Positions 60,291-64,000 of a DNA stretch of 64,000 bases are shown in pieces (the stretch's first letter is position 1; every line of letters starts with the position of its first letter). The translations under genes were made by a program, and so were the position numbers. The DNA lies in the NCBI GenBank assembly GCA_036971615.1, contig JAYKKR010000001.1:558001-622000 (forward strand), in the 5' to 3' direction. Source of the DNA: Amyloporia xantha (taxonomy: Eukaryota > Basidiomycota > Agaricomycetes > Polyporales > Adustoporiaceae). A model generated the notes under the pieces. That model was given only the letters and a program-made list of their open reading frames with translations. It did not search any database and was not told the origin of the DNA.

Positions 60291-62269
60291 TCATGCATTA
60301 TCGTCGTCGGCTTTCGACTTGTCCTCCCGGACCTCGGTCGTCTCCACCTTCTCCGGCACATCCTTGTCCACCGGACGCCAGCTGCTCGACTTCCAGGGTA
60401 GCACCTGAGCGCGGTACATCTCGTCGACCTCCTCGAGCGACAGCCCCTTGGTCTCTGGAATGAAGAGGTACACGTAACAGAAGCCGAACACAAGCATTCC
60501 TGAGAAGATGAGCAGGATGAGCGGGCCGATGTCTGCCGCGATGCGGGGCGAGAAGAACGAGAGCAAGAAGTTCCAGACCCAGTCTATAGGTTCGCAAAGG
60601 TAGCAGTGGTCAGTGAGAAGGTTTGGAACGGAAATAGCAACGTATACGCACTCGTTGCGCTACCGAGAGCGATACATTTCGGGCGGACGCGGAGTGGGAA
60701 GGATTCGCCGAGGTACACCCACGGTGTCGGGCCCCAGAATATCGAGTACGCGAAGACGTGCATAACAGCGAAGGCGATAAGGACATCACCACCTTGCTTG
60801 TTCGACGGGGTGAGCTCGGAGTCCGGAGTGCCTGAAGGTGCGAGCAGGAAGTGACCGACAAGACCAGCGATGAGTGCGCACATCGCCTCGAAAGCAGCTC
60901 CTGTCATCAGCGACTGATGATGGGAAATTATTGTCAGCAACACGAAAATAGATTCAGGAAGGGCGGACGTACCTTGCGACGACCCCAGGTATCAATCAGA
61001 TACAGAGCGGGAACGGTACCGGCAACAGAAACGGCTCCGAGGATGGTCTGAATGACGTAGGGAGACAAGGTCGTTCCCGCGCTTTTGAAGAACGTATCAT
61101 CATAGTAGTCTGAAACATATGGTAAGTCGACACTTTCGGTGAGTGCGTTTGCGAATTAACTCACAGTAGAAGTTCTGCCCGTTGAGCTGTTGGATGAACT
61201 GGAGCATCATGCCGTTGATCGTGCGCTTCCACAGCATGTTGCGCTGTGAGAAGCACTCTAGCCATGTCGCCTTGCCGCCGTCGTTCTCCGCGTGTATAGC
61301 GATCATGAGCTCCTCGACGGTGTCAATGACGAGTGGATCATCCTCCGGCACGCTGTTGAGCTCTGCGACGACCTTCCGCGCCTCCTCTTCTCTCCCTGTG
61401 CCGAGCAAGTGACGCCTAGAAATACCGTGAACGGTCAAATGATACCCTCTCATAGGCATATTTATAAACCACATACGGTGATTCAGGAAGGAAGAAAATT
61501 CCAGAGAGTAGAATAAGACCCCACAGCATCTGCAGACCGACAGGAATACGCCACGACGCAGACCCGGTGATGGTATGTGTCCCGAGGTCGATCACATAGC
61601 TGATGAAGATGCCCATGATGATCTGGACCTGGTAGAGGACGATAAGCATGCCACGCAGCGCTTTCGGTGCGGTCTCTCCGTTGTACAAGGGAACGATTGC
61701 TGATAGTGCGCCGACACCCAGACCTGCGACAAATCGGCCGATGACGATTTGCGCAAGAGAACGGACGGTGCCAGTTTGGATGACGGTGCCGACGGTGAAG
61801 ATGAACGACCAGATGAGGATGGATCCTCGACGGCCAAAGCGATCTGACGTGAAGGCCTGTGCGATCGCTCCGACGATCGTTCTGAGGAAGAAATAAAAAT
61901 GAGGCTCGAAACGGTAAATCGTGAGGGAGACGCGGTGCGTACCCAGCGGACAACAGAGATGTGATGATAGACTGTCGTGAACTTGATAGGGTATATGAAC
62001 CGTCGGCATTTTCTTGACCAAATCGGTTGATGAAGTCAGGCATAATCAAGCATCCCTGCGAATTGAAGACATAAACAACGGGGAAAATATCGATGAAGGA
62101 GCAAGGATACATACTGAGATAACACCGATGTCGTAGCCGAACAGGAAGCCACCTAGACAAAGGACGGCGGTTGAGATACGCCGGCCAACGCACAACTATA
62201 AGTAGTAGACATACCGAAAGCAATGAAAATCGCAAGGAGAATCGCCTTGCGGTTGGATGGTACCGCCAT
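60291..62269 (-). CDS. MFS sugar (hexose-type) transporter
   Basis: Eight exons (62269-62215, 62152-62115, 62055-61943, 61881-61477, 61415-61165, 61109-60973, 60913-60652, 60583-60291) total 1554 nt, 517 aa. Sugar-porter signatures: FGGFLFGYDIGVISG in helix 1, DRFGRRGSI, VIGRFVAGLGVGALSAIVPLYNGE is the family PROSITE-type region (start VIGRFVAGLG), PESPRHLLGTGREEEA, QFIQQLNGQNFYYYY, and PETKGLSLEEVDEMY at the end. Twelve helices are expected. A plasma-membrane H+/monosaccharide symporter or facilitator; QQLNGQNFYYYY is common in fungal monosaccharide carriers. Specific sugar not inferable. Confidence 0.92.
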
Positions 62270-63117
62270 GGTGTTATCGTCACAGCGCTCGTAGAGAAGT
62301 CGTGAGGGGCAAGGAGTTTGTCAAGTTCTCCCAACTTCGAGCGAACCCCCATTGTGTTCCTGTTCCTTTTATTGTGCGGGGGAGCGCTTAACTTCTCCAC
62401 ATCGCGGGGTTGTAGACCTTGATGTGCGGGGAGGATGAAAGCTTTAAGCAGCGGCCCGGCCCAGCCAGCGTGCGCGGACCGGACACATGCTACGACATGC
62501 TATCTTTGCCCCGCTTTCCCCTCGTGTTCATCGTTATTCCAAGCGATCAACGCCCGCGGAATTAGTTCGAACAGAGAGTTAGCGCTGTCCCCCGGATTTT
62601 GTACCCCATATCTTCGTACGCTGGCCGTGTCGCTTCGTAGACGAGTGGCGGAAACAGCTTGGCGGCCCGAACCATGCGCAGTTCTGGGGCATCTTGACCG
62701 ACATTTCTTGCGTCAGCTTTCGGCCGAGTGCCTCCTGAACGGCGGGCCACCGCAGTGACGGAGTGCGACGATAGACCATTCACCCGCACCAAGTGGGGCT
62801 GAAACGGTCGCGTCACACAAGTCCACATGTGAACAACGACATGATGCCTACCTAGCACGACCCGCATGCTGCAGTGAAATTTGAGACGACCTGCAACGCG
62901 TCTACGTCACATCCCATCTTAGTCAGGGGTCAATCACCGACAAGCCAAGGGGCCAAGGGAAGCGAGCGTCGGAGTCGGTCGGATAAGTCTGATCGCGGAA
63001 ATCACACCAGAAAATGAGCCCTCAGTGAAATTCGCTTTTTCGTGAGTCGTGAACTAATGTACACGGAACTGATTGATACCATATCACGAACGTAAGACAA
63101 ACATGGCGAATGACAGC
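62270..63117. other. Intergenic upstream of the transporter
   Basis: 848 nt with the transporter promoter and the 3' flank of the repeat gene. Open frames on both strands at 62435-62867 show no domain. Confidence 0.5.
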
Positions 63118-64000
63118 TCAGTCGAGCTCGTCCAGCAGAGAGCGCGAGCTCTTGAAGTTGTTGTAGGCGTCCTTGACGGCCTCGTATGCATCGTAGCCAT
63201 CCTTGCCAACCGTGTACGCGTCCTTGGCGACGTCCACGATAGGTCCGAGGGAGATCGCCTCCGAGCCGGTCTGCCGTGCAAGGATGTCAAGCAGTTCGCT
63301 GACATTAAATACTTAACCATAGCGCAAGCGAGTAATAGAAGGGACGTAGCTCACCGCTTAGTGGAAGATGTCGGGGCAGTGATCCCGTCATTGGATTTAC
63401 TAGAGGAGCTCTGGGTATTGCCAGAGGAGCCCGTCACATCCTTGACTACATCATAACCGTCCTTGCCAACTTTGTAAACGTCTTTGATCGCATCCCAGAC
63501 AAAACCCAACGACAAGGCCTCCGAACCAGTCTCCCGCGCGAGGATTTCAAGTAGTTCACTAGCGGTTAAAGCATTGAGCACAAAGTATAAGCGAGGGGGA
63601 AAATGGCTCACCGCTTGGTGGAAGATGTCGGGGCAGTAATCCCGCCATTGGTCGTACTAGAGGAGCTCTGGGTATTGCCAGAGGAACCCCCCACATCCTT
63701 GATTAGATCGTAACCGTCCTTGCCCACGGTGTAGACATCTTTGAGCGCGTCCCAGACCGAACCCAGTGACAGGGCCTCCGAATCAGTCTCTGAGCCAGTT
63801 TCGCGAGCAAGGACATCGGCTAAGTCGCTGTGTACCATGTATGAATCAGAAACGACTGATCAATATAGTCGCGATGCTACATACCGAACCTGCATCGGGT
63901 GAATACCAAGAATGCCCCCGTAAGAAACATCGTTTTTGAATTTGCTCCAGTCAAATGCCCTACTCTCTGCTTCTCTCGGACGGACATCAGTCAGTTCCCT
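63118..64000 (-). CDS. Tandem-exon repeat protein with Lys-Arg junctions, 5'-truncated by window edge
   Basis: Four exons on the minus strand: 64000-63885 (start outside the window), 63827-63612, 63558-63355, 63298-63118, in frame to a stop at 63118-63120. Exons 2 and 3 encode near-identical modules of about 72 and 68 residues (LARETGSE ... ALSLG ... VWDA ... KDVY ... VGKDGYD ... KDV ... GSSGNTQSSSS ... GITAPTSSTKR). Exon 4 encodes a third, divergent copy (LARQTGSEAISLG ... YTVGKDGYD) without the Ser-rich tail. Every internal intron is phase 2 and splits the Arg codon of the Lys-Arg pair that closes each module. Lys-Arg is the Kex2 cleavage signal, so this may be a secreted precursor cut into repeats, but no signal peptide is in view. 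The first visible exon has AFDWSKFKNDVSYGGILG. Function unknown. Confidence 0.75.

What the first reader, a model, noticed from the sequence alone, without database searches (positions are those of the whole stretch)
63118..64000. Candidate kexin-processed repeat precursor built by exon duplication
Two adjacent exons encode nearly the same module, each ending TSSTKR, and a third exon is a diverged copy. All junction introns are phase 2 and fall inside the Arg codon of the Lys-Arg pair, so a module can be added or lost without breaking frame and each junction recreates a Kex2 site. This is the design expected of fungal KEP/RiPP-type precursors, but with long (about 68-72 aa) modules rich in acidic/aromatic and Ser-rich parts. 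I know no described family with this exact plan.
Basis: partly seen in the sequence, partly recalled or inferred. Interest (0 to 1): 0.75.

Follow-up and report, generated by a model that had tools for sequence, protein, structure and literature searches.

The report
Fungal multi-peptide precursor gene with exon-coded modules
A fungus related to bracket fungi carries a gene for a protein that looks made to be secreted and cut at arginines into short amphipathic peptides, with its repeat units on separate exons whose borders lie inside the cut-site arginine codon.

Summary
The gene (minus strand) starts 1,106 bases beyond 64000 with a signal-peptide-like N-terminus and encodes 552 aa in seven exons. 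The window modules are real copies under purifying selection (modules 1-2: dN 0.115, dS 0.558). All three window introns are phase 2 and split an Arg codon, but only two are Lys-Arg. I found 14 related loci in this genome and 20 homologous proteins, the named ones all from Polyporales. In seven spliced models 29 of 29 introns are phase 2; 14 split an Arg codon, all CG|N, so any next exon restores Arg; 8 of these sites are dibasic and 12 are followed by Glu/Asp. [quoted passage not shown] The window gene fails the published KEP repeat count; paralogue D appears to pass. A dikaritin RiPP is unlikely. Secretion, cleavage and peptide function are untested; I favour surface- or membrane-active peptides.

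The parts
63118..63298 (-). last exon (7) of gene A: third base of the split Arg, ELLDILAR, core SEAISLG...GKDGYDAYEAVKDAYNNFKSS, then R and tail SLLDELD, stop at 63118-63120
   Evidence: against the last exon of paralogue C (L010 5971-5791) dN 0.247, dS 1.386
63299..63354 (-). intron 6, phase 2, inside the CG|C Arg codon of Lys-Arg
63355..63558 (-). exon 6 = module 2 (ELLEILARETGSEALSLG...TSSTK), with CG of the next Arg at its end
   Evidence: dN/dS 0.21 against module 1
63559..63611 (-). intron 5, phase 2, inside the CG|T Arg codon of Lys-Arg
63612..63827 (-). exon 5 = module 1 (DLADVLARETGSETDSEALSLG...TSSTK)
63828..63884 (-). intron 4, phase 2, inside the CG|C Arg codon of Val-Arg (not Lys-Arg)
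63885..63998 (-). exon 4 (ELTDVRPREAESRAFDWSKFKNDVSYGGILGIHPMQV), not a module copy
63999..64000 (-). last two bases (AG) of intron 3; gene A continues to its ATG at G000:C1:623106 (window-equivalent 65106; L009 4106)
63015..63024 (-). 3'UTR motif TGAGGGCTCA; form TGAGG[AG]?GCTCA is shared with paralogues B-G, 56-112 nt after the stop
   Evidence: a second match in the window at 2565 has no family gene beside it

Best explanation
Gene A encodes a secreted prepro-polyprotein. After signal-peptide removal a kexin-type protease cuts after the Arg at module boundaries (Lys-Arg, Arg-Arg, and probably single Arg before Glu, Asp, Ser or Ala). This releases several amphipathic, mainly helical peptides of roughly 35-60 aa, plus short linker peptides (ELLEILAR type) and a conserved C-terminal tail (SLLDELD). 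Modules in genes A, C and E sit on separate phase-2 exons; because the split codon is CG|N, the cleavage Arg is encoded wholly by the upstream exon and survives any exon swap. Shown by sequence: the gene structure, the repeats, purifying selection on them, the family in this genome and its relatives in Polyporales. Inferred: splicing, secretion, cleavage and activity. The likeliest role of the peptides, at about even odds, is surface or membrane activity (like Ustilago Rep1 peptides or host-defence-type helices). In mechanism it belongs with the KEPs.
For: Intact 552-aa model with six GT-AG introns and a signal-peptide-like start. 29 of 29 introns in genes A-G are phase 2; 14 split an Arg codon, all CGN; 12 of the 14 are followed by Glu/Asp against 28 of 127 other Arg in the same proteins, Fisher p = 4e-6. 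Kex2-cleaved sites are enriched for Asp/Glu and small residues at P1' and P2' (PMC2515848, passages). Paralogue D has Arg-Arg after three type-1 and four type-2 modules; H has Lys-Arg after its three modules; the C12:197k and C12:19k frames have Lys-Arg or Arg-Arg after every module. Module pairs in A, B and D have dN/dS of 0 to 0.21, leaving out B 3-4 (identical) and B 1-5 (dS saturated); several dS values exceed 1 and are rough. Of 15 module cores that I picked, 14 are more amphipathic as helices than their shuffles at p<0.05 without correction for multiple tests. AlphaFold, at low confidence, gives helices 2-9 and 18-44 and a loose Ser-rich tail for module 2. Kexin P-domain matches lie at C12:2329k. 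Cleavage after single Arg was reported, as a possibility, for three Coprinopsis KEPs expressed in Pichia (PMC9769878, Results part 1).
Against: No expression, splicing or peptide data for this gene. Gene A has two Lys-Arg and two Arg-Arg sites in 552 aa. 6 of the 14 Arg-split junctions are monobasic (Thr x3, His x2, Val at P2), and the last Arg before the C-terminal tail is dibasic in only 4 of 25 proteins; classic Kex2 is expected to cut single Arg poorly (recalled). Using CGN at all 14 splits is no more than codon usage predicts (p = 0.25). Introns 5 and 6 of gene A are not detectably related. The 29 introns are not independent, since the genes are related, and no background intron-phase distribution was measured for this genome. 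Core H1 is not amphipathic (p = 0.57).
Confidence: 0.78

Rival explanations
1. An uncut, secreted modular repeat protein (for example a metal-binding or wall-associated His-rich protein) whose amphipathic repeats work while joined; Arg at module ends is a remnant of the exon structure.
For: Few dibasic sites in gene A (two Lys-Arg, two Arg-Arg); long His-rich stretches and Ser-rich linkers; 6 of 14 Arg-split junctions monobasic.
Against: Paralogues D and H and the C12:197k and C12:19k genes place dibasic pairs after their modules; acidic residue after the Arg at 12 of 14 junctions; in all 25 of 27 tabulated proteins that have the tail, the last Arg lies 6-9 residues from the end; no compact fold predicted, though at low confidence.
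Confidence: 0.12
2. A dikaritin (ustiloxin-type) RiPP precursor: Kex2 cuts, then UstYa-family oxidases cyclise Tyr-containing cores.
For: Signal-like start, repeats and Lys-Arg sites as in dikaritins; cores contain Tyr and Trp.
Against: Of 32 UstYa (PF11807) matches in the genome none lies on C1, C60, C22, C12, C55, C27 or C39; on C45 the nearest is about 88 kb from gene G (the search is a lower bound). Cores are 35-60 aa with helical character.
Confidence: 0.03
3. A signalling precursor (alpha-pheromone-like or developmental peptide).
For: KEPs with pheromone-like features exist in Basidiomycota (PMC6339444, abstract and passages).
Against: By eye, no repeated Ste13 dipeptide (XA/XP) at the start of the modules and no short invariant core; several divergent module types within one precursor.
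Confidence: 0.07

Closest known systems
KEX2-processed repeat proteins (KEPs), linear-peptide type (Le Marquer 2019; Umemura 2020; Vogt 2022)
   Same: Signal-peptide-like start, repeated segments bounded by basic sites, fungal protein; products consistent with cleavage after single Arg were reported for Coprinopsis KEPs expressed in Pichia
   Different: Gene A fails the count of at least three repeats between dibasic sites; modules on separate exons with a CG|N split Arg; conserved tail of the LDELD type; mixed module types and His-rich stretches
Ustilago maydis Rep1 repellents
   Same: Basidiomycete precursor cut into 37-aa peptides (passage in PMC6339444), close to the 36-aa units of paralogues B and D
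   Different: No sequence comparison was made; Rep1 peptides form amyloid-like fibrils (passage in PMC9769878), untested for this family
Candida albicans Ece1/candidalysin
   Same: Linear KEP-derived peptide from a fungus (passage in PMC9769878); cytolytic 31-aa peptide encoded by ECE1 (abstract start in the listing of PMC12153327); that it is amphipathic is recalled
   Different: Distant organism; no sequence comparison was made; no evidence of cytolytic activity here
Dikaritins (ustiloxin type)
   Same: Repeat precursor with a signal peptide, cut by Kex2
   Different: Nearest UstYa match to any family locus about 88 kb away; long cores

Membership tests
KEP | N-terminal signal peptide | tested here: inconclusive
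   Signal-like hydrophobic start in all seven modelled genes (mean KD 1.85-2.35); SignalP was not available
KEP | At least three repeats between dibasic sites (Umemura: 8-100 aa; Le Marquer: three similar KR/RR/KK fragments; criteria read) | tested here: not met
   Gene A cut at KR/RR/RK/KK gives 14, 135, 101, 155, 68, 59 aa, at KR/RR only 149, 101, 155, 68, 59; judged by eye only the last two are clean modules. Paralogue D appears to meet it: 36-38 aa fragments, two type-1 and three type-2, when cut at KR/RR
KEP | Kex2-type protease in the genome | tested here: met
   Two P_proprotein matches over the cut-off at C12:2329488-2329800, taken as one gene; its catalytic domain was not examined
KEP | Module peptides found after processing | not testable with these tools
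   No proteomics available
dikaritin RiPP | UstYa (DUF3328) gene near the precursor | tested here: not met
   32 UstYa matches, none on C1; nearest to any of the 14 loci about 88 kb, on C45
Rep1 repellents | Surface-active amyloid-like fibrils | not testable with these tools
   Needs peptide biochemistry
Rep1 repellents | Sequence homology to Rep1 | not tested
   No Rep1 sequence was compared

The most novel reading that the evidence does not exclude
A peptide-precursor superfamily of Polyporales in which module exons share phase-2 boundaries inside a four-fold degenerate CG|N arginine codon, so that cut-ready peptide modules can be exchanged between genes without losing the cleavage residue, while a 5'UTR intron element, the signal exon and an LDELD-type tail stay fixed. 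Processing would rely on a protease that accepts single Arg followed by an acidic or small residue.
Probability: 0.3. Interest if true: 0.65.

Novelty: new variant of a known kind. Interest (0 to 1): 0.5.

Why it matters
KEPs are widespread in fungi and their functions are largely unknown (PMC9769878, abstract); the two published screens whose criteria I read count dibasic sites. The window gene fails that count, yet its modules are under purifying selection and its relatives occur in several families of Polyporales. It offers a case of exon modules whose borders preserve the protease site, and a defined set of peptides to look for by mass spectrometry.

Tried and rejected
Pfam on proteins A-D gave no credible domain: the one match over its cut-off, Peptidase_M15_4 on C (26.6 against 25 bits), lies across repeat modules and I regard it as chance. 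A PDB sequence search with the type-1 module profile gave only weak matches (best E 0.018). The AlphaFold model of module 2 has mean pLDDT 54.7 and pTM 0.26, so no fold search was run. A 3'UTR-motif match at window 2565 was checked for another family gene; none was seen. The two C15 matches and C45:1715817 show no family-like frame and were dropped from the family count; so 8 of 11 matches are family genes (reversed-pattern control 2) and 9 of 9 (control 0). Both patterns were taken from family genes, and gene G is found by neither. A weak protein match at C1:1889637 (E 0.076) was not followed. That the split codon is selected to be CGN was tested and not supported (p = 0.25). Intron similarity as proof of exon duplication in gene A failed. 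A paper search for an amphibian caerulein-type exon plan found nothing.

Full report
What is there. The finding's gene lies on the minus strand and runs off the window end. Reading on (locus L009) gives a complete model of 552 aa in seven exons, start codon at C1:623106, stop at window 63118-63120. The model has no internal stop and six GT-AG introns of 52-58 nt, all phase 2.

Check of the observation. Modules 1 (63612-63827) and 2 (63355-63558) differ at 36 of 201 aligned bases, 20 synonymous and 16 non-synonymous, dN 0.115, dS 0.558. Module 3 (63118-63298) shares the ELLDILAR, SEAISLG and GKDGYD parts and has SLLDELD at its end in place of the Ser-rich half. The three junctions are V[R]D, K[R]E and K[R]E, where the bracketed residue is the split codon. 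So phase and Arg are right for three of three, Lys-Arg for two of three. Beyond the window the gene has a signal-peptide-like exon, a His-rich exon with another type-1 module ending R[R], and an exon with DQxQTG repeats whose last codon, split by the intron, is Gln.

Family in the genome. Protein and DNA searches led to paralogues B (tandem neighbour, L009 6941-5550), C (C60), D (C22), E (C12:2147k), F (C55, short, no amphipathic module) and G (C45:300k). Six of the seven end in an LDELD-type tail (DEMD in E); G does not. All seven carry a motif of splice-donor form 159-203 nt before the ATG and the motif TGAGG[AG]?GCTCA 56-112 nt after the stop. Using the 5' motif as a pattern with up to 3 mismatches gave 8 family genes among 11 matches (reversed control 2) and 9 among 9 (control 0). 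These added H and I (C27:76k, C27:251k), C12:197k, C12:19k, C27:329k, C39:13k and C45:1513k; a protein search with repeats of H hit all of these except C45:1513k. That makes 14 loci, a lower bound. 12 of 14 show the tail (in C39:13k in a separate frame); G and the frame listed for I do not. The exact 3' motif is present in A-G and absent from the H and I loci and from the other loci checked. The patterns came from family genes, so these hits find the family and are not independent proof of it.

Anatomy of the junctions. In genes A-G 29 of 29 introns are phase 2. Fourteen split an Arg codon (14 of the 22 that are not the first intron of a gene), ten CGT and four CGC. CG|N encodes Arg whatever base comes next, so the upstream exon alone carries the cleavage residue; this follows from the code, and the sole use of CGN is not more than codon usage predicts (p = 0.25). 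P2 is Lys or Arg in 8 of 14 and Thr, His or Val in 6. The next residue is Glu or Asp in 12 of 14 against 28 of 127 other Arg in the same seven proteins (p = 4e-6), in line with the enrichment of acidic and small residues after Kex2-cut sites (PMC2515848, passages only). Duplication of exon plus intron is visible in C (introns 4 and 5, 73% identical, shuffle maximum 68% in 300) but not in A (introns 5 and 6, 57%, shuffle maximum 66%). Against a general exon-per-module plan, B and D carry tandem modules within one exon and H reads as one frame.

Modules. Type-1 (SEAISLG...GKDGYDAYEAGK), type-2 (NDIDTGLKVAGDA...HNAWDSFK) and gene E modules are linked by profile comparison: E with type-2 probability 98.5, E with type-1 89.6, type-1 with type-2 90.7 (few sequences each). 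Repeats within B and D keep their protein sequence in spite of silent divergence, dN/dS 0-0.10, with the identical pair B 3-4 and the saturated pair B 1-5 left out. Of 15 cores that I picked, 14 have a helical hydrophobic moment above shuffles at p<0.05, uncorrected; H1 does not. AlphaFold gives helices 2-9 and 18-44 of module 2 and a loose tail, mean pLDDT 54.7.

Relatives. Three protein searches, each scoring a capped list of 7,996 or 7,997 candidates, gave 7 (E up to 0.001), 7 (E up to 0.01) and 10 (E up to 0.001) proteins, 20 distinct ones: from Laetiporus sulphureus, Wolfiporia cocos, Rhodonia (Postia) placenta, Daedalea quercina, Rhodofomes roseus, Sparassis crispa, Antrodiella citrinella and unnamed metagenome sources. 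19 of 20 carry the tail; P0018 does not. The last Arg before the tail is dibasic in 4 of the 25 paralogues and homologues that have it. P0003 (326 aa on a 1,045-base contig) and P0006 (392 aa on 1,549 bases) read on past the signal peptide, where genes A-G have an intron, which suggests spliced transcripts; I infer this from lengths and did not see their DNA. Wider distribution is not excluded by the capped searches.

How it most likely works. Secretory entry; cutting by a kexin-type protease at dibasic and acid-flanked single Arg; trimming of basic ends by a Kex1-type carboxypeptidase, as described for KEPs (PMC9769878, passages); release of amphipathic peptides. Kexin P-domain matches were found at one place in the genome, a lower bound. 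None of these steps is shown for this gene. The role of the peptides is open; Rep1-like surface activity or membrane activity lead, both untested.

Comparison and novelty. In mechanism this is KEP-like. By the published repeat counts (read) the window gene fails and paralogue D appears by eye to pass, so I file the gene as a variant, not as a plain member. It is probably not a dikaritin: the UstYa match nearest to any family locus is about 88 kb away. Papers seen: PMC9769878 (abstract, Results part 1 of 3, Discussion, passages), PMC6339444 (abstract, pipeline section, passages), PMC7329392 (abstract, Methods, passages), PMC2515848 (passages), PMC12153327 (search listing). The searches listed no paper on this family or its exon plan, as judged from titles and abstract starts; supplementary KEP tables could not be opened, so members may already be listed there.

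Noticed in passing
L009 6941-5550 (C1:625941-624550): Tandem paralogue B upstream of gene A, with five 36-aa repeats in one exon; repeats 3 and 4 are identical in DNA.
   Followed up: yes
L037 4762-4298 (C55): Short paralogue F (86 aa in the model) keeps the signal exon, UTR motifs and tail but has no amphipathic module.
   Followed up: partly
L036 5221-5277 (C12): Intron 4 of paralogue E appears to use a GC-AG splice pair.
   Followed up: no
L059 (C12:19k), L061 (C27:329k), L062 (C39:13k): Two copies with identical 370-aa frames and a third that looks frame-broken, each within about 20 kb of a contig end; recent duplications or assembly copies.
   Followed up: no
L053 and L054 (C27:76k and C27:251k): Near-identical paralogues H and I with Lys-Arg-ended short units; in the frame listed for I the C-terminal part and tail are missing.
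   Followed up: partly
L063 (C45:1513k): Family locus with repeated APFYEGPGPQAVRLPPAFQELCGTSKR units between SEAINIKK-type modules and the tail; it was not spliced or studied further.
   Followed up: no
window 60291-62270, minus strand: Neighbouring gene looks by eye like an MFS sugar transporter; no domain search was run on it.
   Followed up: no
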